Below are positions 9,439-39,917 of a stretch of 64,000 nucleotides of DNA, piece by piece (position 1 is the stretch's first letter; each line of letters starts with the position of its first letter). Position numbers and translations under genes: made by a program. Below the pieces are notes generated by a model. The model saw nothing but the letters and a program-made list of their open reading frames with translations, searched no databases and had not been told where the DNA came from. Location of the stretch: the NCBI GenBank assembly GCA_905221615.1, contig CAJNDT010006134.1, forward strand, positions 194,501 to 258,500. The letters run 5' to 3'. The DNA is from Symbiodinium sp. CCMP2592 (lineage: Eukaryota; Sar; Dinophyceae; Suessiales; Symbiodiniaceae).

Positions 9439-9953
9439 GACAGGCCCTCATACACGAGACCTGCTCTGGAAACAGCCGGACACTCGGAGCCCAATTTGGA
9501 TTATTGTTCCAGGATGCCATGTGGAGCGTATATCGGCATTAGGTCGGTTAAGTCCGTCTTCTGTGCATCAACCACAGGCGCGACAATCATGCAGGTATCA
9601 AGATTTCAGCATTTATGCATTCGAATTCGGGGTGAAGGAAGTTTTGAGGGTTTTGGCCTCCGACAAACTCCGGAAGCTCAACTTCTTGAAAGCCTCTACA
9701 ACCCTCTGAACCCCAACAGCAGCCAGTCAAGTGGGCTTGGATTTGGGTCTCGGCCTTTGGATTTCGGGGTTCCGCGATGCTACATCCGATCTGCACTTGA
9801 AGACGAGCATAAACTGCTCCGCACCATCGACAAGCGGGGATTGCTCAAATTGCTGCCAGCAGTGCGGGCAGCCGAAGTCCCATGTGGCAGTCCAGGTTGG
9901 GGGTTCAGGATTTAAGGGTTTGCCTTGATACCAAACGCCTGAACTTCATACAT
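9439..9953. other. Upstream flank of the RCC1-type gene, no gene seen
   Basis: No repeat or domain-bearing frame. Short plus-strand frames that run out of the RCC1 gene are shadows of it. Confidence 0.45.
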
Positions 9954-23681: not shown

Positions 23682-23891
23682 GTACACTAGCTAGCGTATC
23701 CTCCCGCCACCTCCCTCTACACCTCCGGGGAGTACGTAGCAAGCCTAGCTTAAGCTAGCTGGCTTCACGCAGTAGCACGGACAACACGAACTTCTCTCTT
23801 TTTAGCGTTGTGGCGAAGTCCCGCGTTAGCCCGGAGAAGAACTCCCGCGTTAGCCCGGAGAAGAACTCTAGCCTTTGGCTAGCTAATCTCC
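23682..23891 (-). repeat. Terminal repeat B2 of the split-direct-repeat element
   Basis: 210 bp. Matches B1 (24136-24321) except for a 24-bp tandem duplication (CCGCGTTAGCCCGGAGAAGA plus four bases). Begins GTACACTAGCTAGCG and ends GGCTAGCTAATCTCC on the + strand. Confidence 0.95.
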
Positions 23892-23970
23892 AGGGTGGGT
23901 TGGGTGGGCACTCGAAATTTGCCCCCCAATAGCTGGGGGCCTTTCAGCACAATGGCCACGGAGTAGCACT

Positions 23971-24135
23971 GCTTCACCGGCCATGTGCAGACACTCTAGC
24001 AAACAGACAAGCTTCGTTCTGTTTAGCTTCAGAGGAAAACCCCTTCGACGTTTTCTAGCGAAACACCTTCGATGTTTCCCAAAGGGATACTGGCGCTAGC
24101 ATACACTGTCGTACCTCGTCCCTCGGCACGAGTGC
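23971..24135 (-). repeat. Internal repeat A2
   Basis: 165 bp, matching A1 at 39753-39917 with no difference seen. Begins GCTTCACCGGCCATG and ends CTCGGCACGAGTGC on the + strand. Confidence 0.95.
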
Positions 24136-24321
24136 GTACACTAGCTAGCGTATCCTCCCGCCACCTCCCTCTACACCTCCGGGGAGTACGTAGCAAGCCT
24201 AGCTTAAGCTAGCTGGCTTCACGCAGTAGCACGGACAACACGAACTTCTCTCTTTTTAGCGTTGTGGCGAAGTCCCGCGTTAGCCCGGAGAAGAACTCTA
24301 GCCTTTGGCTAGCTAATCTCC
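24136..24321 (-). repeat. Internal repeat B1
   Basis: 186 bp copy of B2, lying directly between the RNase H end (24338) and A2. Confidence 0.95.
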
Positions 24322-24337
24322 TTGCGCAGCCGTAGGG

Positions 24338-24676
24338 CTACCAGGGACCTAGCTTACGGGCCTTCTTAGCGAACCTCGGAGCCTTCGGCTCTCCGGTCCT
24401 TTTCCTCACTCCTAGCTCTTGGAAGTAGCTAGCCGAGTGTTCGAGGAGACGGCCCAGCACGCGCCACTCTAGCTTCCCCCCCTCCAGGTTCACCCTGAAG
24501 TCCGGGGAGAAACTAGCGAAGTTCTCGTTCGTGAGGTCGTCCGCTAGCTGGTTCAGATCCCTGCGGATCCACTGTAGCTGAAGCTCACAGTTCTTAGCGG
24601 AGAGTTCCTCTGCTAGCTCCATCAACACCAGGGTCGACGGGAACTTCGTCGTCATAGCCTTCTTCAGTAGCGCTTC
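24338..24676 (-). pseudogene. RNase H C-terminus of the split-direct-repeat element, cut off by the LINE
   Basis: After the LINE target copy the frame reads EALLKKAMTTKFPSTLVLME, then LQLQWIRRDLNQLADDLTN and ends KKARKLGPW. It continues the protein that stops making sense at 35460 (TDNQSNEALLK), so the two pieces are halves of one RNase H. The QWIRRDLNQLADDL segment matches the end of DIRS-type RNase H, where an aspartate and ADxL stretch are typical. About 110 codons. It cannot be translated with the first part while the LINE is present. Confidence 0.8.
24661..24676. repeat. LINE target-site duplication, left copy
   Basis: TCTTCAGTAGCGCTTC, identical to 35460-35475. Removing one copy and the LINE restores the RNase H frame. 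Confidence 0.95.
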
Positions 24677-24682
24677 TTTTTT
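24677..24682 (-). other. LINE 3' end, A6 tail
   Basis: Six T on the + strand directly after the target copy, read as AAAAAA at the element's 3' end; a short tail typical of target-primed reverse transcription. Confidence 0.75.
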
Positions 24683-25473
24683 GCTTGTTGAGTGCTCGCG
24701 CCGCCTGTGTAGGCACAAACGACGTGTCAGAGGTCTCAAGCAGGGACGTGAACTACAGAACTGTACCACACAAGCTCACGTAACACTAAGTGGTGCATTC
24801 CCGGCGGTAGCCGAAGTCCTTCGCTGGGGTTAGCACTCTGGTGACAAACTTTCCGCCGTGCAAACAGTTGTACACCGCACAACAGGAAAGTATCAATCTA
24901 CAAGTCAACGACCGGAGGGCTCGGGGTGTACAGTAGAGCCTCCTCAGGACACGGGCAAGCAGGCCCAGGATCCAAGTCGGACTAGTCACTTTACAGAAAA
25001 CGTAGTACAAAGGTGCTTACAGACCTTAAACGGAGCCAAAAGCACAAGTGCAGCTCCTAAACTCAACGTGCCTTACACTCAGATGTACAGGGTCCAAATG
25101 AAGGCACAGGCAAAGCCCCACACTTATTTACAAGAACTGTACACGAAGCGAGCAGTCAGGTTTCACGACGACGTTCGAACTCAGGTGACGTCGCTGCAGC
25201 CCAGACAGCAGCCCAGGTCACAGCGGCTCGAAGAAGCAGCTCAGCGGCCCACCATTGCCAGCAGCACCAGCCCAGAAGTGAGTCTCGAAGCAGCAGCACA
25301 GCTGCTGTAAGCGCTAGCAGCTCCAGCCCCGAAGAGTCACAGAAAGTCCAGCCTTCTAGCGAAGAAGAGCTCCGGCGACCCTCAAGCTGACAAAGAGGCA
25401 CTCGCAGCAGGCCAGAAGCCGTGCAAGTACCTTTCCACGCAAGCGGGCGGGGGAACCAGGACTAAACCCTAAA
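24683..25473 (-). other. LINE 3' untranslated region
   Basis: About 790 bases between the ORF2 stop and the A tail. Rich in GCTGCTG/CAGCAGC steps near 25190-25330. No domain-bearing frame. Confidence 0.6.
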
Positions 25474-28400
25474 CTAGGCCCCTTGGGGGAGGCCTTGTGC
25501 GGCAGTCAGGCATCGACGGACCTCCCGAGGAAGGGTCCTGATACCTTTGAGGTGTTCGTGCAATCGCTCCGCAGCCTTAGCCGAAGCACGAACAGCAGTC
25601 ACCTCCCACTCCTTTGCAGTAGCAGCCTCAGCATACCACTTTTCACGAAGCGATCCCCGCAGGCGCCTGGCAACACAAGCCTTGGCGGCTTTATCCGCCG
25701 CTGAGTTCAGGGATCTAAGGTGATCAGCAGTCAGGGCGGGGTGCTCCGGCCGCCAATTCAGATGTCTCTCGTGAGCAGGGACCCACAAGAATGTCAATGT
25801 GATGCCTTGGGCTCGAACAGCAGTTGCAAGGGACGATAAACGTGCCCCAAACAGGGGCATCGCCTGGCAATTAAAACGAGCTTTCAGCGCCGCTGTGCAG
25901 TCGGCTGCGACAAAGACGTGGCCTCTAGAGCCTCGTTGGGCCGCCAACAGCACAGCCTCAAGAGTGAGTCTTAAACCGCACATCTCTGCTCTGAAGGAGG
26001 ACTGATCTTCCGCGTTATCAGCTCCAGCGAAGACTTGATCAGGTCTGTTGACGACCGCCGCATGCGCCGCGATTCCATTTTTGGCAGAGCCATCCGTGGC
26101 AATGACGATGTGATCAGCACACTGCAGCTCGGTCACTATGGTCTCGGCAAGCTCCTCAGTGAGTCCAGTGATGTCAACAGCCGGAGGCGGCGGAGGCTGT
26201 TCTGAAACATGTTTGGATAGGAGGCGCTCCTCCCCACGATGCTGTGGTTGGCTCAACCCATTGCGGAGGTCACTAGTTTTGGGACACACCCACAAAAGAT
26301 GCGAGCGACTCGGCCTTACATCCCCACACATGCAGTTGCAGCGCTCAGCTATTGCCTCCTGCGGGGCGGCAGCATTGTAAAACCATGTTGTGCCTCCTGA
26401 AAGGAAAGCAGCGCGGCGGTTATACTCAGAAGAACGATCATTAAGGATTATTCTGTGACCCTGAAACGTTACCCTATATCCCGGCGGGGGACTCGGGAGA
26501 TCTAAGCCTTGCGCAAGATTTGGTTCTGTAGGTCTGTGCAACGATTTGGCAATTCGACGGCACCTCGACAGAAACTGCCCTCTATAAAAATCCTCCAGCC
26601 ACCCTTTCAAGACCGAAAAACTTTCAAAGCCAACACAAACTTTGCGGAGGCCTCCATTGGCATCTCTCCGGAAAATGGTGTCGGCTCGGGCATTTGTCCA
26701 CCACCCTGTCTTGTGCAGAAGATCACCAAACTGAGGCAGGTGACAGATCCAGGTTGCTGGCATTGCGGTTAACGGCAATAGTTCATGCCACACTGGCGGT
26801 TTGGCAATCCACCGCCAAGCCAACTTGCACAATCCAAGATCCAAGGCAAATTCAGGTTCAAGGCCCCAGCCCAGGAGCTCATAGAAGGCAACAGTTGCAG
26901 TGTCGCCTCCATACCCTCCGCTGAAGAGGTGACGAACCTCCGATCTAACAGCATCCAGGTCCTGTCGCGAAGGCCTGGCGAAACCTGAGGCCCATGCCAG
27001 ACACGGAATGACAAGAGATCTGACCAACATTATGCGTGCTCTCGTGGTGGCCTGAGTCCATTTAAGAAGTCGAAGCCTCAGAACAGCTTTGCGCAGTGAG
27101 AACTTGGGCAAGGCTCCGGAGCCGTCAAACGCAAAGCTAACACCTAAAAGGTCAAGTGTGTTGCAGGTCAGAAATTGCCATCGTCTTGCAAGATTCTGCG
27201 TTCCCTCATCATGTGTAGCAGCTGCGATGTAGCACTTGCCCGCAGAGAGCCGGAGCGAAAAGGCATCATCAAAAGCAGCACTGGCATAGAGGGCTTGTTC
27301 AAGATCTTCTAGCGACCCCGATGGCTCCAACACAAGGGTCCGATCATCCATGAAGATTTGCACACCTACGTGGCTACACGATGCTTTCAGAAAGGCGCTC
27401 CAACAATGCGACAAGGCAGCTGCAGCGATCGGGCTGAGCGGGCATCCCTGGGCAAATCCCGACTTAACTACGTGACAACCTTCATCAAAGGAGCCCTCGA
27501 AGCAAAAATACCGTGAGGCCTTGCCATAAAAGGAATCCAAGAGGGGCGCAAGTTGGAGTGGCGCACCCAGTTGTTTGAACACCTTATTCATTGCCGGCAT
27601 GCTCATTGCATCAAAGTATCCTGCAATATCAAGTAGTGCAGCTGTCCGCGTGCCACGATGCAATGCTGCCTGAATTTGGGTCAACACATCGCAAATGGAT
27701 CGGCCAGCAATGCCTCCGTGGTCACTTTCAGTGGCCCATTCGGGCGTCCATTGTCTGAGTGCTTTGGCGACGATTTTTGCGCCAATGCGCCAGATCACCT
27801 GGGTAAGGGTGATTGGTCTGGTCGCTGGCCCGCCTTTCTTTTTGACAAGCACGACCTTAGCCGAGCGCCATAACTCAGGCACAACACCTCGATCCCAGAC
27901 CTCCTGCCATAGTGCAGCTACATGTGCCCACCAACCGATTGGCATTCTACGTAGGTCTCGCCCAAACCAGCCATCGGGACCTGCAGCCTTATCGGCTATG
28001 GAAGCCGACACTGCGCGAAGTTCCTCGGCTTCAAATTTTAAGTTGAGAACCGTCTGCGGCACCTCAGGTACCTTCCGCAAAATGCAATCGATGGCCTCGT
28101 GCTTTGGTTGTGGCTCCGCTTGCCATTTGGCGATCCATTCCTTGGTCTGGTCACGTACCACGACCGACGGGTGTACGGGGCCAGCTTGGTCAGCCGAGGC
28201 AATGTCTAGCGAGCCTTTTTCAAACTCAAGTTGAGCATCGGCACGGGTTTTGACAAAAGTGCGTTGCTTTCCGCTGTCATCCCTGAGGAGTTCCTTCCAG
28301 TTGGCTCGTATGGCCTTTGCTTCCTGGTCCTGACACTCAAGGAGTCGTCTGTCGACGAACGAAGCAAGCTCGTTAAAGTCTGAGCGAACCCAAGGGAGAT

Positions 28401-29382
28401 CAGAAACAAAACGGCGGGCCCGTGGAAGGGACTTCACAACCTTTTGTGCAGTCTGAGGGTCACCGGTTTCAAGAACAACAGCAAGTTGGCGCTGGAGCTT
28501 TGTCAGTGTTTTAACTGTAGCCGAGCCCTGAAGAGCAGGATGAGCCTGATGTTCCATGCGGCGAGGCATCCACGACTGATGTCTGGGTAGGGCCTCGGCT
28601 CTATCGTGGCAGAGACATGTCTCCGCACACGCCGAAAGGAAATTCCAGGCGTGGTCGAGCTGTCCATTATTGAGGGCCTCACGAAACGGGGCACAATCGA
28701 TGGATGCAAACGCTGCAGCGACATCCTCCAAAGGCTGATCGTGTGGGGATCGCCTCAGCGGACCCACATGGAAGTCAGGCACATTTAAAGGGATCTGATA
28801 GCCTACCGATGCGTGATCGGAGAACTCTGGATTGAAGTGCATGATAGCATCCGCCGCAATCGACCAGTGGCATAAGCCGAAATCTATGCGGCGCTTGCGT
28901 CCTGGCCCCGTGGCCGGAAGTGGGGCTCCTTGGGCCGCATCATCCAAGGAGTTTACGGCACCGCTGGCCCGAGCTTCGCCCACAATGGCCTCGTGGGGCT
29001 CTAGATTGAAATCACCGGCGACGATAAACGGCAAATTGCTGTGACAACAGATCGCCAATATGTCCTCTGTCTGCGCAGAGGCGGCCTGTGGATTGCCGGA
29101 TTGCGCATAAATAGCAGCAATCAAAACTTGCTTAACTTCGGAGTCATTCTGAAAATCAAAAATGCCAGCGGCGCATCTTGACGAAGCAAAGCCCTCTGCC
29201 ACCTGAAGACTCCTAAACGTCACCCTGCTAACCAAGGCAACCCTTGAATCTCCAGGACCTTCCGGCACAGACAATGAAACCTGGTATCCTCGCCGCTTCC
29301 AAGCCTTAATAAAGCCTGGTGCCGACGATTGGTTGATATCGGCCTCTGCCACCGTGCAGACCTGCAACTGATGGCAGTCCAT
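25474..29382 (-). CDS. LINE ORF2: endonuclease / reverse transcriptase / RNase H
   Basis: 1302 codons. Residues 1 to about 200 form an exonuclease-endonuclease-phosphatase (APE-type) domain: VAEADINQSS, AGDFNLEP near 122 and the closing SDHASVGY near 190. The reverse transcriptase spans about 500-830, with WRSAKVVLVKKKGG, ALLDIAGYFDAM, GFAQGCPLSP near 640 and FMDD near 676 as catalytic motif. A cysteine-rich segment CNCMCGDVRPSRSHLLWVC lies near 1010, as in many LINEs. RNase H at about 1095-1240 shows ATDGSAKNG, RAEMCGL, AADCTAAL and NSAADKAAKA. These activities nick the target, prime and copy the RNA, and remove it. Start chosen at the first ATG (MDCHQLQVC). Confidence 0.92.
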   Translation of the reverse strand: MDCHQLQVCTVAEADINQSSAPGFIKAWKRRGYQVSLSVPEGPGDSRVALVSRVTFRSLQVAEGFASSRCAAGIFDFQNDSEVKQVLIAAIYAQSGNPQAASAQTEDILAICCHSNLPFIVAGDFNLEPHEAIVGEARASGAVNSLDDAAQGAPLPATGPGRKRRIDFGLCHWSIAADAIMHFNPEFSDHASVGYQIPLNVPDFHVGPLRRSPHDQPLEDVAAAFASIDCAPFREALNNGQLDHAWNFLSACAETCLCHDRAEALPRHQSWMPRRMEHQAHPALQGSATVKTLTKLQRQLAVVLETGDPQTAQKVVKSLPRARRFVSDLPWVRSDFNELASFVDRRLLECQDQEAKAIRANWKELLRDDSGKQRTFVKTRADAQLEFEKGSLDIASADQAGPVHPSVVVRDQTKEWIAKWQAEPQPKHEAIDCILRKVPEVPQTVLNLKFEAEELRAVSASIADKAAGPDGWFGRDLRRMPIGWWAHVAALWQEVWDRGVVPELWRSAKVVLVKKKGGPATRPITLTQVIWRIGAKIVAKALRQWTPEWATESDHGGIAGRSICDVLTQIQAALHRGTRTAALLDIAGYFDAMSMPAMNKVFKQLGAPLQLAPLLDSFYGKASRYFCFEGSFDEGCHVVKSGFAQGCPLSPIAAAALSHCWSAFLKASCSHVGVQIFMDDRTLVLEPSGSLEDLEQALYASAAFDDAFSLRLSAGKCYIAAATHDEGTQNLARRWQFLTCNTLDLLGVSFAFDGSGALPKFSLRKAVLRLRLLKWTQATTRARIMLVRSLVIPCLAWASGFARPSRQDLDAVRSEVRHLFSGGYGGDTATVAFYELLGWGLEPEFALDLGLCKLAWRWIAKPPVWHELLPLTAMPATWICHLPQFGDLLHKTGWWTNARADTIFRRDANGGLRKVCVGFESFSVLKGWLEDFYRGQFLSRCRRIAKSLHRPTEPNLAQGLDLPSPPPGYRVTFQGHRIILNDRSSEYNRRAAFLSGGTTWFYNAAAPQEAIAERCNCMCGDVRPSRSHLLWVCPKTSDLRNGLSQPQHRGEERLLSKHVSEQPPPPPAVDITGLTEELAETIVTELQCADHIVIATDGSAKNGIAAHAAVVNRPDQVFAGADNAEDQSSFRAEMCGLRLTLEAVLLAAQRGSRGHVFVAADCTAALKARFNCQAMPLFGARLSSLATAVRAQGITLTFLWVPAHERHLNWRPEHPALTADHLRSLNSAADKAAKACVARRLRGSLREKWYAEAATAKEWEVTAVRASAKAAERLHEHLKGIRTLPREVRRCLTAAQGLPQGA

Positions 29383-29444
29383 AAAGTTAGCTAGTGCATC
29401 GACAGAAGAAATGCCTTTACCAGCAAGGTTTACAGTTGCAACTC

Positions 29445-32400
29445 TCAGGAAAACGGCAAATTGAAAATATCTCGGGCCTGTTGGAGCAATTTGCTCTCAC
29501 GCTGCTTCTTCCCTCCGGGGGGCGTGTTTTTGCCATGAGCCTTGGCAAGCGCGTCAATGGCCTTGACACGGCGCTTGGCTTTCTTTTGGGCGGTCTCCTT
29601 GTTACACAGTCCCCTTTTGGCGTGGGAAAGGGCATCCCCAGAGGTGCGAAAGGGACCGCAGCAGTTCAGACACATCCATCCAAAAGATGCCGCAAGACCA
29701 CCTTGAGCCTTAAAGGTTTTGGAAGGCGCTGCCCTTGGCCAGCAGAACAGTCTGAAACCCTCAAGGTCAGTGCCCTTGGCTTTGCTAAGGCGCTTGATGC
29801 ACTCGCGACCCCTTCGTGTGACGGCCGCCTTCTCAATGGTGCTGGCACGGTCGAGGGCTTTGAACTTTTTCCAGGAAGTATCAGGATGTGCTTGTGTGCA
29901 GTGGGCCCGCTTGTCAGCAGTGACAGCGTCTGCACTTTTTGAAAAAGCATCCTGCGCGACAATCCCGAAATTGCAAATCGGGCACTTCCAGTGAAGCGTC
30001 TGGCCTCGGCCTGCACGAATCAAAGAAGGCTGCCGCCGACCATGCAACACGCCTGAAGGTACCTGACCAGGGTGATGGGCTTTGTAATGGCTATAAAGCA
30101 TGGTCTTGCGGGCAATGGCATTTTTTGCGGTGGCCCTAAAGGGGCACAAAGGACAGACAACCGCAGTCTTACGATCGAGACACAGCCCCGCACGGCCCCA
30201 GTACCTGATTTGGCGGTCGGTTGGTGGTTGAGGGCCGGTGAAGAGTTCTCCATCATGCTGATCGTGGCTTGCAACCGCCGTCGTCTCAGAGGCAGCGGGG
30301 AGCACGGACACATCCTCACTCCTGCCTTGATCAGCAGGGGATCCGGGCTCTGTCCAAACTGATCCTTGGCCCGAGCTGATGGTGACCTGGGCCTTTGTCC
30401 AGACCGACTTGTGACTGCACGAGCGCTGTGAAGGCAATGTCCAGACCGAGTGCTTCGAAGCAGCAGCGCTGGTTCCAACAGAGGATGTTTTGCCACCCCC
30501 TCTCATGGGCACCTTAGGCGGGGCAGTAACAACATCGCGCAGTTCCTGCGGCAATTTATCTACTGGCCGGAGCCACTCATAATGGCTGCCATTAAAAACC
30601 AATACTACAACCCTTTTGCGCTGCTGAACGTGGACAGCGCACACCTCGAGGTCGGGCGACCGGGGATAAATGACGAATTTAACGTCAAAAATGCGCCCTA
30701 GCGCGGCGAGTTCTAGATGGCCTGACCATGTCCCGACCTCCGCTATAGCATTGATATACTCTGTAAACGAACTGGCAGGAGCCTTGTTCGGCATCTCTCT
30801 ATCCCAAGCAAGTTCGTACCGCTCTTTGTGTTTAGTGAAGTGTTGTGCAACTTTGGCGCGTAACACACTATGCGGTTCTGGCTTAGTCTTGAGAACATGA
30901 GCTAAGGCCGAGGATGCAGCATGGAAAAGGCAATTACCGTCGGTCGGGGCGCTTTCTTGCACCATGCCTTTGGGAAGGTCCCGGGTTTCAGTGCACGTGC
31001 GTTTTGCGGTGCTCGTGCCTTTGCTCGGGGAGCCCCTTTTTGCATCTTTCTCATCCTTGGCCTCTTTAGCTTCCTGAGCAGCCTCCTTTGAGTTGGCCGA
31101 TTTCATGGCAGCGTCATCCTCCGGCTGATTTTCGTCCTCGTCCGGCTGAACAACTTGTGCAACCTTGGTGGTGTCCCCAAAGGGGTCACGCGGAGGCAAC
31201 AGCGACCAGGAGCCATTCGTTCTGATGGTTTGGGCTTGGGGTCTTGCACGGACCGGCGCCCATCTGCACCACATAATTTCAGTCTGGTCCCCATCATCAA
31301 AAGGAAGGGCAACGACATCGTGATCAGTGGTGTGAGCAGCTTTGAAAAAGAAGTTGATTCCCTTACGCGTGCGCTGCTGGCGAGTCATGGTCACTTCTGC
31401 AAAGATGCTCGATACAGCCTCGAGAGCCTGGGCCGCACTCCAGTCGAAGGGGGCATGCTCAAGCATCCACATCCTGGTGATGGCCTGATTAGCATCCCTA
31501 GCAACCCGTTTCCCCAAACCCCTCCGGCCGACTATGATGCCATAAGGGGCTTCGACAGTCCTGACCCGTTGCAGGAAGTCAAGATCACTTTCCTTGGGCT
31601 CTTTCTCAGCCCACTGCACAACAAATGAAGGGAAAGATATCCATCTCGGTGGGTCGATAAATATGCCGTCCCTCCCACTCAATGCAACGAAGGCTGTAAC
31701 GTCGGCCTCGGGGACTCTAAAAAGGGCGTAAACCTTATGATCTTCCCCCTGTGCTTGCTCCTTGGCCCATCCCCAACTGTCCTGCACTTTCATATGTTGC
31801 TGCGCAACCCAAGTGTGGAAAGCTCGCTGGGGACTTGCTATCACATCTTTCCAGGTGGCCTTGGAAACATACCTCTTATAAATCCTCACATACAAGACTG
31901 CTGTTTTCGCCGGCATGACTTTTTGAGCCCTGGCAGCAGCTACCTTTGGGCCCGGCAGGTCAATTCCAGCCGTGCTGATGTGATGGAAATGGACCTGCTT
32001 GAACACACAGCTGTTCCCTATGGCACCAGGACAGCGAGCTGAGGCATCAGGGTGATCAGGAGTGACCGCAACGACCCCATGAGGTCGCTTGGATCCAAGA
32101 AGCAAGGTTGCCAAGAGGTCGGCCTGCCCTGGCCCACAAAGTACGACAGCTTTGTAAACGCCAGTGGTTTTTTCCAGCTCATCTGCGACAGCATCGAAGT
32201 TGACGGCAGGGGCCGTCCAATCCGAGGACCGAAGGCTCCACGAAGCCTGCGGTTTTCTGCGGTCTACGGTCTGCCATTCATCGGTTGGCTGCGCTTCGGC
32301 TGCTCTTGGCTGGTCTTTGCCTTTAGCACCGTCGCCTTTGCCACGGCCGTTGCCAACCTCAGCGGGCTTGCCACCTTCCTTGCCACGACCTTTGCCTACA

Positions 32401-35387
32401 TTGCCCGGCGATTGACCATTGCCGGGGCCTTTGGCGCCGCCTTTGGCGCCTTTGGCCTTGCCTTTGGCATCTGGCGAGCTTCTGTCAGGCTGGGTGGCAT
32501 GGGCGCTGGAGGCAGCAGAAGAATCCTCCCCAGCGGGTGCGTCGGACGCTTTACCATGCTGACGCTTGCGCCGTTTCGGCCCAGGCTGTTCAATCTCCGA
32601 TCCTTGCCTGTCGCCAAGCGAGAGGCCCTGCAGGGCTTCCTGGATGGCTTTTTGCACTGCGGCCTCGATGAAAGCACGGATGTTCGAGGCGAAATCGGGC
32701 CCCAAGATACTGCCAATATCTAGATTGAAACCGCTCTTACCCTCGGATCCCTTGGGTCCTGGATTGCTCGCTTCACCGACACGCACCCCCACGAGGGGCG
32801 ACCAACAAGTTTGCAGCCGAGGAATACAGGCCAAGGGCAGTGCACACCCGACCCACATGGCAACCTCAAAGATGCAATCAAGAACTCCCGGGTCCTGGGT
32901 ATCACTGGTCACGCTGCGCGGTCTCAGGAGGTCCGGGTGCCTCGCCTCAGGTTGAGTCAAGTCGGCATAAACATTTTCATGGTGCTTAGCGCTCCTAGCA
33001 GCTGTCTCGGTACCTAGGGATATACTCGGATCTTGCGACCTACTTGAACCCACGGTACCAGTTGACAGCGCAGTGTGCAGCCACAACAGATCGGGATTAA
33101 GGTGCGAAGCGGTATCATCGCAGCAAATGGCATCAGAGGATTCGGCGCTCCAAGGAGAGCAGGAGACACTAAGGGATATGCTTGGATCTTGCGATCGACC
33201 TGAACCCTCCGTGCCCTGCAACCCTGTATGCTGCCTGCGTCGGTCACTTTCAGCAAACTGGTCCCAAAGTGCAAACCAGCCCGCACTCCCAATGGATATT
33301 CTAGGGTCTTTCGACCGACCTCGACCATCAAGCGTGCAAGGCAGTCTTTCCTCATTGAAATTGGCAGCTTCACCGACCAAGCCTGGGCACAACCTGATCG
33401 AGAAGCCAAAGCACTGGTCACTAGCGGCAGTGATGTCCTCACACAGCAACCCTCGAGAAATAAACCCACCTAAGGAGTGGGAGGACCTAAACCCTAGGGG
33501 GGTGTGGGGAACGATGTTTTCATCTGCGACGCCTCGCCAAGCAGGTACCTTGCACGAGTCTCCCGAAGAGACTCCCAGCCAAAGCCCACGGGACTTGAGG
33601 TCGTCATCGTCTTCATTGCCAGGTGCTGGCATGCACACGTATACCCCACCTAAACCACCTAACGGGGAAGAGGACCTAAACCCAAGGGGGGAAGGAGGGG
33701 CAAAGGCGGCACAGCACGGAGACTCCGCTAAGGGGTCTGGCAGGTAGTAGCTGCCTGCATCACAAGTGTCTTCCCACACAACTGCACCGTCGCAGCGATC
33801 AAATGTCCTGCGTCTGTCGTCGTTGCGGAACAGCCTGCACTCGGGAAACCCACAAAACCCACCTAGGGGGGAAGAGGTCCTAAACCCAAGGAGGGCGGAA
33901 GGTTCGTCGTCGTCGGTGTCTGGTAGGCACACGGATGACCCACTAAACCCACCTAGGGAAGGGAAGGACCTAAACCCTAGGGGGGCAGCAGGGGCGGTGG
34001 CAGCACAGCACGGGTACCCACTAAGGGATTCGTGAGGCCTAGACCCGAAAGAGAAGAGGGGAACCCCTTCGGCACCACAAGCAGTGGCGCAGCAAGCTCG
34101 GTCGGGTGCGTCATGTTCCTGCCGGGCATGACTGCCTGCATCTTGGTTGTCCTCCCAGACGATCGTCGTCCTGTGATCCCATCTCGAGTCCTCAACGTCG
34201 TCACCGAAGTCGATGAAGCTCTGGCCGCCGAGTCCATTCCGCCGCTTGCCATGGCAACAGTTGAAGCTACCAAAAGGGGGCCCAGAACGGGCCGGTGGCG
34301 GGTTAGGGCTCGGGAGTGGCCTCGCGGGCTCTTCATTTTCTTGTTTCGACCAGTTTTCACAGGGGATGGGGCTGGCCGTAAACTCACTTCTTTGCCCTTT
34401 GCGGGTCTTGTTCTGAGTCTTGAAATCAGTCACACTTGCTATGCCTACATGGTGGCTGCTGTCCTGAATCATGTCGCTCCTGATGAGTAACTGGTCACCT
34501 CTGTCATCACTGCATGCAGGTTGGCACTCCTTGTCGCTACCATCTCGTTTCAAGAAGAGGTTGTCCTGAAACACGGTCACGGGCTCGTTGTAGTGGTCCT
34601 GCGGAATCGCCGGGGCTGGGTAGAAGAACTGGCCGCCACCTTCGCTTTCTTCCGCAGCTCGATCAGGGCCTGTGAGGTCCATCGTCGTCAAGCCTTGCCC
34701 CGTCCTGACACCAAGGCTGCTCCTAGCAAAGGCACCGGCAACAACCTCCAGGTCAGGGCATTTCCTTGCATTGTCCAGGAAAGCCTCCTCGACTTCTTCA
34801 GCAGAAGGGCCGCCGCTGATCGTGGGGTGGCAGTCACCCTCCTTGGTCCCAGCAGCTGTCCTGCCCTCCTTGTCGACATTGCTCGCGAAAGCCCGCAATC
34901 TGCAGGCTGGGCCCTCCTTGGAGAGCCTGGGTGGGCTGTCAACGCAGCCTGTCTCTAGGCACACACCATACAAAAGTCCACGTCGCCACAAACAGCTGCA
35001 AAGGAAGAGGTCACGCTCACCACTTGCAGGGTCATGGCAGTCAGGGGCATGAACAGCATGTGCAATTTCACTCGAAACATGTGTGCCATCCAACACCCGA
35101 AGGCGCAGGACTTCCCTCATCACTTCATGTTTCTGTTGTGCCAAAATGGCATGGATTCTCCACAAAGGCGTAGTACCAGAGAGGTTGCCCTTCTCGAAGG
35201 GAAACCGCAACTTTCGACCGTCAACCCAAACGGCGAAGTATGGAACATGTGATTTCTCTGGAACTTTGGGTAGGGAAAGTTCAGGGGTCGTGTCGAGTAT
35301 GTACTTCAACTTGTGCATATAGTAGTCGCGCGCCATGCCACCGGACGACGGAGCCATCACTGGAGCACAGCTTTTTCTAAACGGCAA
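29445..35387 (-). CDS. LINE ORF1: repeat region, NPGP motif, OTU protease, zinc fingers
   Basis: 1980 codons. The N-terminal third has degenerate repeats (LGFRSSSPLGG about 5 times, then GRSQDPSISL about 4 times). Residues 867-878 read VRVGEASNPGP, which resembles a 2A-type NPG/P site but lacks its usual acidic residues. A Lys/Gly/Ala-rich basic stretch follows. Near 1480 an OTU cysteine-protease domain starts with TDGNCLFHAAS (candidate catalytic Cys) and closes near 1598 with FNGSHYEWL (candidate His). The end carries C2H2-like fingers (CPLC...HYKAHH near 1745, CPIC...H near 1800) and CLNCCGPF near 1915. Likely roles are RNA binding and a protease/deubiquitinase step, inferred from domains only. 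The start lies 58 bases after the spliced-leader relic. Confidence 0.85.
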   Translation of the reverse strand: MPFRKSCAPVMAPSSGGMARDYYMHKLKYILDTTPELSLPKVPEKSHVPYFAVWVDGRKLRFPFEKGNLSGTTPLWRIHAILAQQKHEVMREVLRLRVLDGTHVSSEIAHAVHAPDCHDPASGERDLFLCSCLWRRGLLYGVCLETGCVDSPPRLSKEGPACRLRAFASNVDKEGRTAAGTKEGDCHPTISGGPSAEEVEEAFLDNARKCPDLEVVAGAFARSSLGVRTGQGLTTMDLTGPDRAAEESEGGGQFFYPAPAIPQDHYNEPVTVFQDNLFLKRDGSDKECQPACSDDRGDQLLIRSDMIQDSSHHVGIASVTDFKTQNKTRKGQRSEFTASPIPCENWSKQENEEPARPLPSPNPPPARSGPPFGSFNCCHGKRRNGLGGQSFIDFGDDVEDSRWDHRTTIVWEDNQDAGSHARQEHDAPDRACCATACGAEGVPLFSFGSRPHESLSGYPCCAATAPAAPLGFRSFPSLGGFSGSSVCLPDTDDDEPSALLGFRTSSPLGGFCGFPECRLFRNDDRRRTFDRCDGAVVWEDTCDAGSYYLPDPLAESPCCAAFAPPSPLGFRSSSPLGGLGGVYVCMPAPGNEDDDDLKSRGLWLGVSSGDSCKVPAWRGVADENIVPHTPLGFRSSHSLGGFISRGLLCEDITAASDQCFGFSIRLCPGLVGEAANFNEERLPCTLDGRGRSKDPRISIGSAGWFALWDQFAESDRRRQHTGLQGTEGSGRSQDPSISLSVSCSPWSAESSDAICCDDTASHLNPDLLWLHTALSTGTVGSSRSQDPSISLGTETAARSAKHHENVYADLTQPEARHPDLLRPRSVTSDTQDPGVLDCIFEVAMWVGCALPLACIPRLQTCWSPLVGVRVGEASNPGPKGSEGKSGFNLDIGSILGPDFASNIRAFIEAAVQKAIQEALQGLSLGDRQGSEIEQPGPKRRKRQHGKASDAPAGEDSSAASSAHATQPDRSSPDAKGKAKGAKGGAKGPGNGQSPGNVGKGRGKEGGKPAEVGNGRGKGDGAKGKDQPRAAEAQPTDEWQTVDRRKPQASWSLRSSDWTAPAVNFDAVADELEKTTGVYKAVVLCGPGQADLLATLLLGSKRPHGVVAVTPDHPDASARCPGAIGNSCVFKQVHFHHISTAGIDLPGPKVAAARAQKVMPAKTAVLYVRIYKRYVSKATWKDVIASPQRAFHTWVAQQHMKVQDSWGWAKEQAQGEDHKVYALFRVPEADVTAFVALSGRDGIFIDPPRWISFPSFVVQWAEKEPKESDLDFLQRVRTVEAPYGIIVGRRGLGKRVARDANQAITRMWMLEHAPFDWSAAQALEAVSSIFAEVTMTRQQRTRKGINFFFKAAHTTDHDVVALPFDDGDQTEIMWCRWAPVRARPQAQTIRTNGSWSLLPPRDPFGDTTKVAQVVQPDEDENQPEDDAAMKSANSKEAAQEAKEAKDEKDAKRGSPSKGTSTAKRTCTETRDLPKGMVQESAPTDGNCLFHAASSALAHVLKTKPEPHSVLRAKVAQHFTKHKERYELAWDREMPNKAPASSFTEYINAIAEVGTWSGHLELAALGRIFDVKFVIYPRSPDLEVCAVHVQQRKRVVVLVFNGSHYEWLRPVDKLPQELRDVVTAPPKVPMRGGGKTSSVGTSAAASKHSVWTLPSQRSCSHKSVWTKAQVTISSGQGSVWTEPGSPADQGRSEDVSVLPAASETTAVASHDQHDGELFTGPQPPTDRQIRYWGRAGLCLDRKTAVVCPLCPFRATAKNAIARKTMLYSHYKAHHPGQVPSGVLHGRRQPSLIRAGRGQTLHWKCPICNFGIVAQDAFSKSADAVTADKRAHCTQAHPDTSWKKFKALDRASTIEKAAVTRRGRECIKRLSKAKGTDLEGFRLFCWPRAAPSKTFKAQGGLAASFGWMCLNCCGPFRTSGDALSHAKRGLCNKETAQKKAKRRVKAIDALAKAHGKNTPPGGKKQRESKLLQQARDIFNLPFS

Positions 35388-35445
35388 GCACTGTTGGCAG
35401 CCGTCCTACCCTACGACACCCAGCTTTGATCGCGTGGAGATCGTG

Positions 35446-35459
35446 CTTGAGCCAAAGCC
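35446..35459 (-). promoter_or_regulatory. Spliced-leader relic at the LINE 5' end
   Basis: The first 14 bases of the LINE read GGCTTTGGCTCAAG. The last 11 match the 3' part of the dinoflagellate spliced leader (...CATTTTGGCTCAAG), directly after the target duplication. This is what reverse transcription of a trans-spliced mRNA, stopping just short of its 5' end, would leave. Confidence 0.75.
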
Positions 35460-35475
35460 TCTTCAGTAGCGCTTC
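35460..35475. repeat. LINE target-site duplication, right copy
   Basis: TCTTCAGTAGCGCTTC, identical to 24661-24676. Confidence 0.95.
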
Positions 35476-38310
35476 GTTGGACTGGTTGTCAGTGTAGCCC
35501 CGGATGGCCACCTTGGAGGTCTTCTTAGCATCCCCTTCCGGTACCCAGAGCCTCACACCAACCAGAGTAGCCAGTAGCTCCAGTGCGGCTATGACCTTGT
35601 TCGGGTCTCCCTTAGCGAAGGCCCAGGGGGCCCATTCCTTCTTCACCTCTAGCGAGAACCAGGGACCGTGGCAGCCGTCCACTAGCTCGAGGAAGCCCCC
35701 AATCCAGGCACGTCCGTTCTCGGCCTTAGCGTCGGTGTAAAAGGAGAGCGGTGCCGCCCCGTCCAATAGCGAGGCCGGCTTCTGGAGACGGCCCCCCGCT
35801 GCTAAACGGTCTGCTAGCCAGCCACAGAGGACGCGAATCATCGTGGGTAGCGTGAGGATCCCCAGCTTCCCTTGTACGGCTGAAGACCAGGCGTGTAGCG
35901 GTCCCAAGAAGGGGCGCTCCCAGTCTAGCGCCATGGAAGCGAACCCCAGGCGCCCTAGCCCCTGCGCAAAGGGCCGGGCCTCGCACTTCCCGTCACGGAC
36001 TAGCTTCCGTAGCCATTCCACTAGCCAGTCGGTTCTCTTCTGAGACAGACCTAGCCTCCAGGTGGAGTACTCCGTCTCCATGCCTAGCCACTCCACCCGA
36101 AATCCCCCCCTCGTCTTGGCCCACTTGAAGGGGTACCCAAGACTAGCGAGGAAGAGATAGCTTAGCGGGATCCCCATGCGCCCTCTAGCCCCCCGGCCCA
36201 AGGACTCGAGGTCGTCGGCATAGAGGAGCATGTCTAGCGGGAACGATGGCCCTAGCAGGTGGTACGTGAGCCGAAGCCCACACGCCGCTATGCGGGTCCA
36301 CCAGTAGCTCGCGCAGGATAGCCCGAAGGTCCCCACCAGGTTAACGTAAACCGTCTGGCTGTCGGGGTCCCCCGGTGTAGCTTCCTCGGTGTCGATCTGA
36401 CACCCCAGGTAGCCATGCTCTCCTTCAGCATGCTTGTAGCGTCGGTGAGCCTTAGCGATGTCGCCCACCACGGAGAAAGCCACCTCGTTAGCGTCGATGT
36501 GTTCCCGAAGTAGCTGCTTCTTCTCCCTAGCTCCCGGGGCCCGGATCTTATCCCTGCACTTGATGCGGTGGTTGACCCGGACCCCGTGAGTAGCGTCGTG
36601 GATCATCCTCTTCTTTCCACTAGCTTCGTCCTCGACGATGACAGCTAGCGCGGCGATGGCTCGATGCTCGCCATAGCGGGCTTTGAACTCGCCTAGCGTC
36701 ATCTTGACCATGAGGCCCTCCGCCACGTCCTCTTCGAACTTCTCCCTAGCGAACTCCCGGTACTCCTCCACCGAGGAGTAGTTCGGGACCCAGGCTAGCG
36801 CCGCCTCCCAAGGGGCGTTCTCCAAGGGCCACTTTAGCTGTTCCTCGAAGACGTGGGGAGTGCGTGGTAGCGGGTCTCTCACCCCCACCGGTAGCCCCTC
36901 CTCGGCCTGGAGGAGGAAGTCCCTGTCGGGATCGCCGGCCGCGGTCAGTAGCGCCCGAATGAGGCGGAGGTATAGCGGTTGCCCCGGGGCCACCTTCAGC
37001 AGCTCCGGGTCCCCCAGGTCGTTAGCTTCCAGCCACTCTTTCCAGATCAAGCGTAGCTGCTCCTGGAGGTCTTCGGAGCTAGCCAGGGCACAGCCCTTGG
37101 CCCCTCCGGCCGCCATTCGGAAGGCTTCCTTCTCTAGCTCCGCCTCCGAACCCACCTTAGCGAGGATCACCTCCATCATCTTCTCCCGTAGCCAGTTCCA
37201 GTTGGGACCATCGGCATAGCTGCGGGTAGCGTGGGGCCAGCGTCCTGGGGAGCAGAGGCCCCCACCATCGTGGTAGCTCTTGTTGCCACCTAGCTGTTGG
37301 CAGGTCCTTGGTGGTCCTGAACCCCCTAGCACTCGCGGACCCTCCGGCTCACAGGTCGGGAAGGTCTCGGGTAGCGGGCACTCCGGCCTAGCGCCACCCC
37401 CCTCCCCCTGGGCAGCGGTAGCAGGGTGCTGGCAGGAGTCCAGAATTAGGGTAGCCAGCCACTGGCACATCCTAGCGGGCCACTTCTCGGAACCTGAGGT
37501 CTTGAAGGGGCCCTTAGCGGTGCGTTTGAACATGCGACCCAAGGTAGCAGCAGAAGGCAGCGGTCCTGTGTAGCAGCCCTTTTTGTCATAGCACGGCAGG
37601 CCTTCGTGCACAAAGTCTGGCATAGCGGAAGAACACTTCAGGAGTAGCCGTGTAGGCTTAGCGTATGGCGTACCAAAACTAGCCTGGTGGAAGGCCACGG
37701 TCCGTAGCCCCTTTTCCAGAAGGGTGGCTAGCGGCGGCCACTGCCACATAGAGGCCGGCCGTGCTCCTTTGCGCGGGCCCTTAGCGAGGGCACCAAGGTC
37801 CTCGGGCTGTTCCATGGCCAGGAAGGTAGCTGCACCATCGGCCACGAGATTAGCGACCTCAAAGCTGAAATCCGCAAAAATGTTGCCTAGTATAGCTCGA
37901 TCGCGCTCTGCAGGTGTCACCGTCTCCAGGCCTCGGGGGAACTCGTAGCTGCGCACCGGGCGGGGCCCTTGGAAGTTAGCCCAAGGCGCCCTGGAGAAAC
38001 TAGCACATGGCGGGGAGAGAACCACGGCATGGAACTCTTTGCTAGCGATCCGGTCCAGGTAGCTTTGCCGGATCTTGGGGTGGCTGAGGTCGTATCTAGC
38101 GTGCCGTAGCAGGTCGACACATTCGACCCGCACATCTTTCGCGAGCTCTGCTGCTAGCTGGTGCAGGCAGTGCGCCACATCTAGCCGGCGTGAGGTACCT
38201 GAGAAGAGGTACAGCACCCGTAGCGGCTTTGTCGGCGTAGCGGCCGGCGCTGCTGGCGTAGCGGCCGGTGAGTCTGGCGTAGCATCCCCCCCGGGGGGGG
38301 TCACAGGCAC
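35460..38310 (-). pseudogene. Methyltransferase-like / reverse transcriptase / RNase H protein (first part, cut by the LINE)
   Basis: About 950 codons up to the LINE; the frame runs on into the LINE leader and stops at 35377. Residues 30 to about 290 resemble a DNA cytosine-5 methyltransferase core: LYLFSGTSRRLDVA (motif I-like), VVLSPPCASFSR near 96-107 (the PPC motif IV), FLAMEQPED (motif VI-like), FGTPYAKPTRLLL near 215 (motif VIII-like). The reverse transcriptase lies at about 540-800 with RMIHDATHGVRVNHRI, VGDIAKAHRR and LYADDLESL near 694. RNase H starts near 845 (SFYTDAKAENG, ALELLATL, GYTDNQSNEALLK) and is finished by 24338-24676. A start at 38310 lies 24 bases after the gag stop in another frame. 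Whether the methyltransferase is active is unknown. Confidence 0.8.
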
Positions 38311-38334
38311 TGAGGGCGCAGCCGCCGTAGCGGG

Positions 38335-39564
38335 TCAGTTGGAGGGCTTGTCCTCCTTAGCTGCGTCGGTCTGCTTGCTCGGGCACTTGGTAGCTGGGTG
38401 CTTGCCGAAGCATAGCGAGCAAACGTGCTCGAAGTGGCACTTGCTGCCATTCTTGCATCCCTTAGCATTGTAGCGGAAGCAGATGGGCTTCCCCTGCGGG
38501 GTGCGATCGGCACCCAAGCGTTTCTTAGCTTTGCCCCCTTTGGGGGGGCCGTCTTTGCCTTTGCCCTTCCCCTTGGGGGTCTTAGCGGGCCGGTCCTCCG
38601 TGGAGGTCCAGGGCTGCGGCCGCTTGGCATGGAGGGCGAGCGGCGTCGTGAAGTGCCGCTCCTTCACGCTAGCGTCCTTGTAGGCCAGGACTAGCGCAGC
38701 ACCGAAGGAGTAGCCGGCTGTGGCCATGACCTTGTAGGCGTGCTTCCTGATAGCGTGCTCGTAGCTGAGGACCAAGGTCCACGGGGGCACTAGCGACCCC
38801 GAGTCGGCACTGGACCGGAGACCATAGCAATAGTCTCCGAGGAGATAGTCTTTATAGCGCTCGAAGAGGGCCATGTTGACATCCTTTAGCTCCTCTCGAT
38901 TGGGGTGTTTTAGCTGCATCATAATTAGCGTGTTCTGGAGGACCGTGAGCCGCAGCCGTAGCTGCTCCGGCCCAGAGGGCATGGGGGCCCTAGCTCCGCC
39001 CTTCTTCATGGATAGCGTGCCATTGCCGTTCCAGACGGGCAGTAGCGTGTCAGGATCCCACTCGTCCCGGCTGATGACCTCGGTTAGCGGCTCCGCTCGG
39101 AACTCGCCAGATTCGAGCTCACCTAGCTTCTTCTCGATGTACTCCTTAGCGGGAGTTTGCTTGTCCTCCAGGTCTCCGAACTTAGCTGTGAAGGCCTGGC
39201 GCATGGCCATGTAATCCGTAGCGGGGATGGGCTTCGCCCAATCCCGGACCTCATGTGTAGCCTCCGCCTCCGCTTGCCGCTCGGAGCGGGAATTAGCGGT
39301 CCGCCATGCGATGGTGACCCCCGCGGCCTGAGCGCGGCTAGCGAGCGAGGTGGACGGCTCAATTGCAAAGCTGTCTTTTAGCATCTTCTTGAGGTCCGCC
39401 TCATCTGTTGCCGAGGCTGCGAACTTAGCGACGGTATCAATACCGTTGGAAAAGAGCTCGGATTGGATAGCATCCGAGACTTTATGTTGCACTAGCAGGA
39501 AACGAAGCTCGCTGCTTCCGAGGGCTAGCTTCTTCGCCAGAGCCTCTGCCATGGTAGCCGGCAC
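38335..39564 (-). CDS. Gag-like zinc-finger protein of the split-direct-repeat element
   Basis: 409 codons, intact. The N-terminus is acidic/alanine-rich (MPATMAEALAKKLALGSSEL), the middle is charged with no recognised fold, and a Lys/Gly-rich basic stretch (KTPKGKGKGK) follows near 330. The C-terminus has a CCCH finger (CFRYNAKGCKNGSKCHFEH, about 357-375) directly followed by a CCHC-like knuckle (CSLCFGKHPATKC). Such fingers bind RNA, so a nucleocapsid role is the natural reading. It is the first ORF after terminal repeat A1 and is followed by the polymerase ORF. The CCCH finger is of the same type as in the Copia Gag of this window. Confidence 0.8.
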   Translation of the reverse strand: MPATMAEALAKKLALGSSELRFLLVQHKVSDAIQSELFSNGIDTVAKFAASATDEADLKKMLKDSFAIEPSTSLASRAQAAGVTIAWRTANSRSERQAEAEATHEVRDWAKPIPATDYMAMRQAFTAKFGDLEDKQTPAKEYIEKKLGELESGEFRAEPLTEVISRDEWDPDTLLPVWNGNGTLSMKKGGARAPMPSGPEQLRLRLTVLQNTLIMMQLKHPNREELKDVNMALFERYKDYLLGDYCYGLRSSADSGSLVPPWTLVLSYEHAIRKHAYKVMATAGYSFGAALVLAYKDASVKERHFTTPLALHAKRPQPWTSTEDRPAKTPKGKGKGKDGPPKGGKAKKRLGADRTPQGKPICFRYNAKGCKNGSKCHFEHVCSLCFGKHPATKCPSKQTDAAKEDKPSN

Positions 39565-39752
39565 GACGGGCCCTACGCTACCCTAAGGAAAAATGTGAAA
39601 AGAAAAATTCCTGCTAGCACATTGGGGAAAAGCTCCTAGCGTGAGAGTGTGTCTGGGAGTGCCGGTCGATAGCTTTCGCTGAAAGGGGTCACTGCAGCAG
39701 AGAGCGGCCCTAGCAGCACCACCGACCCCGGCCCCGGCCCCCCCCAAGACTA
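39565..39752 (-). other. Leader between repeat A1 and gag
   Basis: 188 non-coding bases with TAGC at a density similar to the coding part, and a GGCCCCGGCCCC run near 39728-39743. Confidence 0.6.
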
Positions 39753-39917
39753 GCTTCACCGGCCATGTGCAGACACTCTAGCAAACAGACAAGCTTCGTT
39801 CTGTTTAGCTTCAGAGGAAAACCCCTTCGACGTTTTCTAGCGAAACACCTTCGATGTTTCCCAAAGGGATACTGGCGCTAGCATACACTGTCGTACCTCG
39901 TCCCTCGGCACGAGTGC
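39753..39917 (-). repeat. Terminal repeat A1 of the split-direct-repeat element
   Basis: 165 bp, same as A2 (23971-24135). Its outer edge cuts the Copia ORF after the codons for GSEDPDGDFG. Confidence 0.95.

What the first reader, a model, noticed from the sequence alone, without database searches (positions are those of the whole stretch)
23682..39917. One-strand GCTA punctuation about every 30 bases, only in the split-direct-repeat element
By hand count, TAGC (+ strand; GCTA in element sense) occurs 24 times in 36061-36840 and 23 times in 37217-37854, a mean spacing of about 30 with few gaps above 50. Chance predicts about 3 in 780 bases. The 780 bases at 42001 (Copia) and at 27001 (LINE) show only about 2-4. 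The opposite orientation is at background. It occurs in all three codon positions and also in the non-coding repeats and leader (11 in the 210-bp B2), and stops sharply at 24676/35460 and at 23682/39917. Spacing is more even than random. I know of no described signal like this. Options: a repeated RNA site for the element's own zinc-finger Gag, a target or shield for its methyltransferase-like domain, or a single-strand packaging/replication signal.
Basis: seen in the sequence. Interest (0 to 1): 0.9.

Follow-up and report, generated by a model that had tools for sequence, protein, structure and literature searches.

The report
Jumping gene dotted with GCTA marks
A jumping gene of a single-celled alga carries the same four letters, GCTA, about every 31 letters along one strand, kept there by selection about as strict as that on its proteins, which looks like a self-identity mark for its RNA of a kind I know no description of.

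Summary
GCTA (element sense, minus strand) occurs 136 times in 4458 nt (15.6 expected) and 40 times in 995 nt (3.7 expected), mean spacing 31. It is a nucleotide-level constraint: permuting synonymous codons keeps only 39-47% of it, and use of a synonymously possible GCTA depends on the gap it fills: 68 of 71 if its absence would leave 60 nt or more, 9 of 51 if under 40. Among synonymous differences between closely related copies in the same genome, 4 of 244 destroy a GCTA (42.4 expected). Five Gags 60-64% identical to the window's stay enriched although positions turn over. By a protein proxy the trait marks one clade of the family, and that clade alone has a one-residue insertion in Gag's CCCH zinc finger (30 of 30 against 0 of 64 rows). 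Main gaps: no binding data, and DNA of GCTA-free relatives from the same genome could not be fetched.

The parts
35460..39917 (-). Main part of the element (5' part in element sense), 136 GCTA in element sense, 16 on the other strand
23682..24676 (-). Rest of the element (3' part) beyond the nested LINE, 40 GCTA in element sense, 13 on the other strand
39753..39917 (-). Repeat A1 (165 bp), 4 GCTA
39553..39752 (-). Leader before gag, 5 GCTA in 200 nt
38335..39552 (-). gag ORF (405 aa; CCCH finger plus CCHC-like knuckle near the C-terminus), 35 GCTA; 62 synonymously possible sites
35460..38334 (-). pol ORF, first part: methyltransferase-like stretch (motif only), reverse transcriptase, start of RNase H; 91 GCTA
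24338..24676 (-). pol ORF, last part (rest of RNase H), cut off by the LINE
   Evidence: translation; end coordinate read by eye
24136..24305 (-). Repeat B1 (170 bp core); 11 GCTA in 24136-24357
23971..24135 (-). Repeat A2 (165 bp, identical to A1), 4 GCTA
23682..23891 (-). Repeat B2 (210 bp with an internal duplication), 11 GCTA
24677..35459 (-). Nested LINE with 16-bp target duplication (24661-24676 = 35460-35475); GCTA at or below background: internal control

Best explanation
SHOWN: GCTA on the sense strand is a distributed nucleotide signal under purifying selection in this element, present in coding parts, leader and repeats. Selection acts on coverage rather than on fixed places: a possible site is nearly always used where otherwise 60 nt or more would lack one, and seldom beside another. 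INFERRED: the signal is read on single-stranded element RNA (GCUA) by the element's own Gag, through its C-terminal CCCH finger (a finger type known to read GC or GCU in single-stranded RNA) and the neighbouring CCHC-like knuckle. Gag loads at one site per about 30 nt and coats the RNA from end to end, so that only the element's own full-length RNA is packaged or protected for reverse transcription. The code arose once in this family, together with a one-residue insertion in the finger, and has since bent synonymous codons and even dipeptide choice.
For: Enrichment and strand bias; synonymous permutation gag 36 against 16.9+-2.7, pol 91 against 35.9+-4.2, nested LINE ORFs and Copia at or below their shuffles; base before CTA codons is G in 55 of 57, base after GCT codons is A in 55 of 66 (gag and pol summed); 126 of 214 synonymously possible sites used against 12 of 168, 11 of 178 and 20 of 230 in the LINE ORFs and Copia; gap dependence 68 of 71 against 9 of 51, difference 0.78 against a null of 0.01+-0.09, largest of 2000 0.32; synonymous GCTA losses 4 of 244 against 42.4 expected in closely related copies; private differences hitting GCTA 3 of 287 against 35.0 in six more diverged copies without frame damage in the piece examined; enrichment kept in five gags at 60-64% identity with codon identity of only 0.39-0.49 at same-residue sites outside GCTA; 1470 nt upstream of gag in another subfamily (L022), without significant DNA similarity to the window's leader, has 39 GCTA against 4.9 expected and 3 TAGC; one clade by protein proxy in gag (55 rows) and pol (23 rows); finger insertion 30 of 30 rows in that clade, 0 of 64 outside; sites slightly more unpaired than tetramers of equal composition, p 0.0018. 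A CCCH finger of MBNL1 reads GCU in single-stranded RNA (PMC3103431, passages).
Against: No binding, packaging or RNA data. The finger/GCTA link is one evolutionary event, and a second fixed indel (two residues near 255) separates the same groups. P0139, at the base of the clade, has the insertion but a proxy score of only 0.1. Even spacing is not universal: L047 has enrichment without it (max gap 264; 570 of 1000 nulls as even), L049 is borderline (95 of 1000), L046 weak (41 of 1000). Between distant gags, lost sites are mostly not nearer to a site of the other sequence than random points are (median 10-22 nt against 11-17), so local replacement is not shown, and sites are kept only moderately better than other codons (0.44-0.66 against 0.39-0.49 in pairs with the window's gag or L022). 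The accessibility effect is small. Gag's model matches no solved fold and the Ty3 Gag match is not significant (E 0.28). A reader acting on cDNA, or a host protein, would fit most of the data.
Confidence: 0.55

Rival explanations
1. GCUA recruits a host RNA-binding protein (export, stability, or a licence against silencing or splicing), and elements are selected for coverage so that no stretch is left unprotected.
For: The same one-strand, coverage-type selection would result; sites in leader, coding and repeats alike.
Against: Other elements of the same host (nested LINE, Copia) do without it; relatives outside the clade, by proxy, lack it; a clade-specific change lies in the element's own finger. 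DNA of GCTA-free relatives in this very genome was not obtained.
Confidence: 0.2
2. GCTA/GCUA is the substrate of the element's own cytosine-methyltransferase-like domain, marking its RNA or single-stranded cDNA as self.
For: Pol starts with residues resembling C5-methyltransferase motifs (P108 and C110 of PPC, E175 and P177 of EQP), invariant in the 26 aligned sequences (motif names recalled); retroelement DNMTs are known in Symbiodinium (PMC5890265, parts 1-2 read).
Against: The same residues are invariant in relatives without the GCTA proxy; Pfam sees no methylase domain; the paper's abstract reports CG methylation for retrotransposon DNMTs; a one-strand motif is odd for duplex DNA methylation.
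Confidence: 0.12
3. The signal works on single-stranded cDNA (GCTA or its complement TAGC), for example for loading a DNA-binding protein, second-strand priming or recombination in a tyrosine-recombinase-like cycle.
For: Strand polarity and whole-length coverage fit a single-stranded DNA intermediate as well as RNA.
Against: One site per 31 nt is far denser than priming would need (inference); no recombinase ORF of 200 aa or more is seen in this copy; no positive evidence.
Confidence: 0.1
4. Mutation bias, hypomutability or codon usage makes or preserves GCTA without selection.
For: Nothing positive; the hypomutability test on broken copies rests on few sites.
Against: All three codon phases and non-coding parts; synonymous permutation; dependence on the distance to the next site, which no mutation bias predicts; of two copies with frame-breaking gaps, L054 loses GCTA at the neutral rate (4 of 36 private differences, 4.4 expected) and L057 has too few differences (0 of 7, 1.0 expected), while six copies without such gaps have 3 of 287 (35.0 expected).
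Confidence: 0.03

Closest known systems
SymbioDIRS-Dnmt3 and other DIRS-like retrotransposons of Symbiodinium (PMC5890265)
   Same: Host group, repeats in A-coding-B-A-B order, RT/RNase H pol with a methyltransferase-like part
   Different: No tyrosine recombinase ORF of 200 aa or more in this copy, no Pfam-recognisable DNMT; in the parts and passages I read no dispersed tetranucleotide is described
UCUG sites of murine leukaemia virus bound by nucleocapsid (PMC2951377, passage)
   Same: Unpaired tetranucleotide read by a zinc-finger Gag product for genome packaging
   Different: Over-represented in the 5' untranslated region; here the whole element is covered, evenly, with coding sequence bent to fit
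Dispersed packaging signals of small RNA viruses (STNV, PMC3593212, seen in a search listing only)
   Same: Several sites along one RNA that bind the coat protein
   Different: Those are stem-loops with a short loop motif (recalled); here a bare tetramer without evident structure
MBNL1 CCCH fingers (PMC3103431, passages)
   Same: CCCH finger reading GC or GCU in single-stranded RNA
   Different: Splicing factor, not compared with Gag by any search; only the finger chemistry is comparable
Polar genome motifs such as Chi, KOPS or DNA uptake sequences (recalled)
   Same: Short, strand-polar, dispersed, selected
   Different: About 8-12 bases long and hundreds to thousands of bases apart, read on DNA, in bacteria

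Membership tests
DIRS-like retrotransposon (split direct repeats, tyrosine recombinase) | Split direct repeats A1 ... B1 A2 ... B2 | tested here: met
   A 165 bp 100% identical, B 170 bp 98%
DIRS-like retrotransposon (split direct repeats, tyrosine recombinase) | Reverse transcriptase and RNase H | tested here: met
DIRS-like retrotransposon (split direct repeats, tyrosine recombinase) | Own tyrosine recombinase | tested here: not met
   apart from the LINE and two flanking frames that run a little way into the edges, no ORF of 200 aa or more in the element but gag and pol; shorter ORFs were not searched. So DIRS-like in anatomy, not filed as a full member
SymbioDIRS-Dnmt3 | Dnmt3 (PF00145) domain in pol | tested here: not met
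   no Pfam match to it for the window's pol or any of the 26 aligned sequences; motif-level resemblance only
Gag-bound dispersed packaging signal | Many copies of one motif along the genomic RNA, conserved against synonymous drift | tested here: met
   density rather than position over long times
Gag-bound dispersed packaging signal | Motif presented unpaired or in a loop | tested here: inconclusive
   mean unpaired probability 0.177 against 0.142 for tetramers of equal composition, p 0.0018; small effect
Gag-bound dispersed packaging signal | Binds Gag and drives packaging | not testable with these tools
   only the finger insertion points to it
C5-methyltransferase target site | Base modified at the site by the element's enzyme | not testable with these tools
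   no modification data; the fold of the first 300 residues of pol was barely tested

The most novel reading that the evidence does not exclude
A retroelement carries a linear covering code: a bare tetranucleotide, read on one strand by its own Gag finger, which must occur in nearly every stretch of about 60 nt of its RNA. It works as whole-length molecular self-recognition, constrains synonymous sites about as hard as protein sequence, and bends amino-acid choice; it arose once together with a finger insertion.
Probability: 0.5. Interest if true: 0.95.

Novelty: categorically new. Interest (0 to 1): 0.9.

Why it matters
How retroelement Gag proteins pick their own full-length RNA out of all cell RNA is largely unsolved outside a few retroviruses (recalled). 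Here the answer may be written in the sequence as a countable code with a measurable spacing rule, whose reader can be tested with one purified finger. It is also a clean case of a nucleotide signal that constrains synonymous sites about as hard as protein function does and visibly shapes protein sequence, and it would let GCUA-marked non-autonomous passengers be predicted from sequence. If Gag binding is shown, it would be re-filed as a new, extreme variant of dispersed packaging signals.

Tried and rejected
Codon usage: rejected (all phases, non-coding parts, permutation). Mutation bias: rejected by gap dependence. Longer motif: only a weak preference against G before the site. Helical spacing: none evident by eye in the pair correlation; multiples of 3 are in excess (64 of 135), as coding sequence would give. 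Another tetramer in remote relatives: none stands out in L001; the protein scan is too blunt to say for others. In that plain protein scan GCTA ranked 2nd of 256 in the gag clade and 6th in the pol group, so not first; in the clade-against-others contrast it ranked 2nd in gag, 1st in pol and 1st combined. The pol groups and the gag groups were partly chosen by the proxy itself, so they are supporting only; the tree-based groups were not (trees rooted at the midpoint). Viral and prokaryote collections: no relatives, one (L001). Gag fold search: nothing with E under 0.001. Methyltransferase fold: the second look listed only RT matches, which is no evidence against it.

Corrected on re-checking: I had first described an exchange of sites at pol positions 783/786 as a two-step compensation. 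One search shows one base change (GCTGCTA to GCTACTA) that loses one site and makes another three bases upstream, an Ala-to-Thr change; 7 of 20 copies have it, 12 keep the old site, and one (L008) has neither. The column has three states and was therefore not's count; being non-synonymous it does not touch the 4 of 244.

Dropped rows: one search used columns with exactly two states and at least 15 (pol, 20 rows) or 10 (gag, 17 rows) letters; one search's distant comparison used 6 of the 9 gag sequences (near duplicates left out); one search fetched 8 of the 105 gag matches, fetched 8 of the 41 rows, those of lowest identity apart from the 70-base fragment; one search's private differences were not cleared of variants shared among those eight. 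The trees hold the 120 best listed hits: of 124 for pol, of 265 for gag.

Full report

The count. GCTA in element sense occurs 136 times in 4458 nt and 40 times in 995 nt, where base composition predicts 15.6 and 3.7. The other strand has 16 and 13. The density is at least 24 per kb in each of nine segments: repeats, leader, gag, pol, spacer. The LINE inside it and the Copia ORF beside it are at background.

It is a nucleotide constraint. Permuting synonymous codons within each ORF gives 16.9+-2.7 against 36 (gag frame) and 35.9+-4.2 against 91 (pol); in the two LINE ORFs and Copia the observed number is at or below the permuted one. CTA codons follow a G in 55 of 57 cases and GCT codons precede an A in 55 of 66 (gag and pol summed). 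Of 214 places in gag and pol where the amino acids permit GCTA, 126 have it, against 12 of 168, 11 of 178 and 20 of 230 in the controls; no tetramer with more than 20 such places reaches a higher fraction.

It is a covering rule. If leaving a possible site unused would leave 60 nt or more between neighbours, it is used in 68 of 71 cases; if under 40 nt, in 9 of 51. Random choice of the same number of sites gives no such difference (0.01+-0.09, largest of 2000: 0.32, observed 0.78). Spacing CV is 0.43 in gag and in pol against 0.81 and 0.82 (0 of 5000 in each). Each site thus seems to serve about 20-30 nt on either side (inference).

It is under selection in recent copies. The genome search listed 41 rows for a 1.5-kb pol piece at 93-100% identity, the window itself and one 70-base fragment included. 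Among synonymous differences between closely related copies, GCTA is destroyed in 1 of 67 and 0 of 69 (pol; private and shared differences, 20 rows) and 2 of 60 and 1 of 48 (gag, 17 rows), 4 of 244 in all, with 42.4 expected. Non-synonymous differences are depleted in the same data (pol private ones 28 of 95, 67.4 expected), so the constraint on GCTA is of the same order as that on protein. Six more diverged copies without frame damage in the piece examined have 3 of 287 private differences in GCTA (35.0 expected); of two with frame-breaking gaps, one has 4 of 36 (4.4 expected) and the other 0 of 7 (1.0 expected), a hint, on few sites, that dead copies lose the sites freely. In pol, 7 of 20 copies have lost a site by a base change that makes another three bases upstream, and one has lost it outright.

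It is old and not tied to places. Five gag sequences 60-64% identical to the window's (L022, L046-L049) have 29, 32, 22, 24 and 27 GCTA against 16.0, 15.2, 10.2, 11.0 and 13.0 in synonymous permutations, although codon identity at same-residue sites outside GCTA has fallen to 0.39-0.49 between the window's gag or L022 and the others. In the 12 pairs at 60-83% identity only 5 to 14 sites are shared. Results against a simple picture: sites are kept only moderately better than other codons in these distant pairs, and lost sites are mostly not nearer to a site of the other sequence than random points are. Even spacing is clear in L022 and L048 (2 and 16 of 1000 nulls), weaker in L046 (41), borderline in L049 (95) and absent in L047 (570). 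In L022, 1470 nt upstream of gag, with no significant DNA similarity to the window's leader (best E 0.15), hold 39 GCTA (4.9 expected) and 3 TAGC; part of this may code, as one frame is open for 245 codons. In L024 the density drops to 0-1 per 150 nt over most of that stretch, whose sequence there differs from the other members printed.

One origin. Without DNA for most relatives I used a proxy: GCTA favours Ala before residues with A-starting codons and Tyr after Gly/Ser/Cys/Arg. In a midpoint-rooted tree of 121 Gags, all 55 rows on the window's side of a branch with support 99 score above zero (0.1 to 4.8), while the 66 others scatter around zero (-2.1 to 1.6). In a pol tree, the 23-row clade of the query scores 1.6 to 6.1; the next 20 rows average 0.72 and the remaining 78 average -0.23. 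The one remote relative whose DNA I have, L001 (33% identity, a contig filed under a Planctomycetota MAG), has 6 GCTA in 3403 nt, where its base fractions predict about 10.5 (and my arithmetic).

Who reads it. In Gag only two indels separate the two groups almost completely (90% against 10%): a one-residue insertion between the second and third cysteine of the CCCH finger, in 30 of 30 clade rows and 0 of 64 others that span it, and two residues near position 255, lacking in 48 of 49 clade rows and present in 66 of 66 others. CCCH fingers are known to read GC and GCU in single-stranded RNA (MBNL1, PMC3103431, passages), and MLV nucleocapsid reads unpaired UCUG (PMC2951377, passage). The simplest reading is that the altered finger created or sharpened a GCUA specificity and that the RNA followed. 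This is one event in evolution, so it is an argument of coincidence, not proof. The methyltransferase-like residues, by contrast, are invariant in clade and non-clade members alike.

What is not settled. RNA against single-stranded DNA, Gag against host reader, and packaging against protection cannot be told apart here. DNA of GCTA-free relatives from the same genome was not obtained, because the genome search answered only two of its many requests. The trait may be described somewhere I could not read: a full-text search for GCTA with dinoflagellate and retrotransposon gave 0 papers, and two wider searches (titles and abstract starts seen) listed nothing like it.

Noticed in passing
24677-35459: Nested LINE whose 1986-aa first frame carries an OTU-like cysteine protease domain (E 6.4e-15); the second frame has an RT domain (E 1e-13) and an endonuclease match just under its cut-off.
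   Followed up: partly
39811-45339 and 21649-23754: Long minus-strand open frames end and begin just inside the element's two edges; by eye they may be one frame interrupted by a clean insertion without target duplication.
   Followed up: no
L001 1-3403: A contig filed under a Planctomycetota MAG encodes a pol relative (33% identity) of a family whose named members here are dinoflagellate proteins: probably eukaryotic contamination.
   Followed up: partly
35460-39917: GTAA (0, 10.7 expected) and GTAG (2, 16.2 expected) are strongly depleted in element sense; may reflect codon use or avoidance of splice-like signals.
   Followed up: no
L022 upstream of gag: Another subfamily has an open stretch of 245 codons within the 1470 nt upstream of gag, where the window's element has only A1 and a 200-nt leader.
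   Followed up: no
38335-39552: The Gag profile gives a non-significant match to the C-terminal half of Ty3 Gag, zinc knuckle included (E 0.28).
   Followed up: no
L022-L028, L031, pol parts: Members of one gag subfamily have pol parts of differing identity to the window's (55.9-76.2%), which may mean recombination between subfamilies.
   Followed up: no
7963-9447: 494-aa minus-strand frame with repeated 'VVTWGD' units that look like RCC1-type repeats (recalled; translation only).
   Followed up: no
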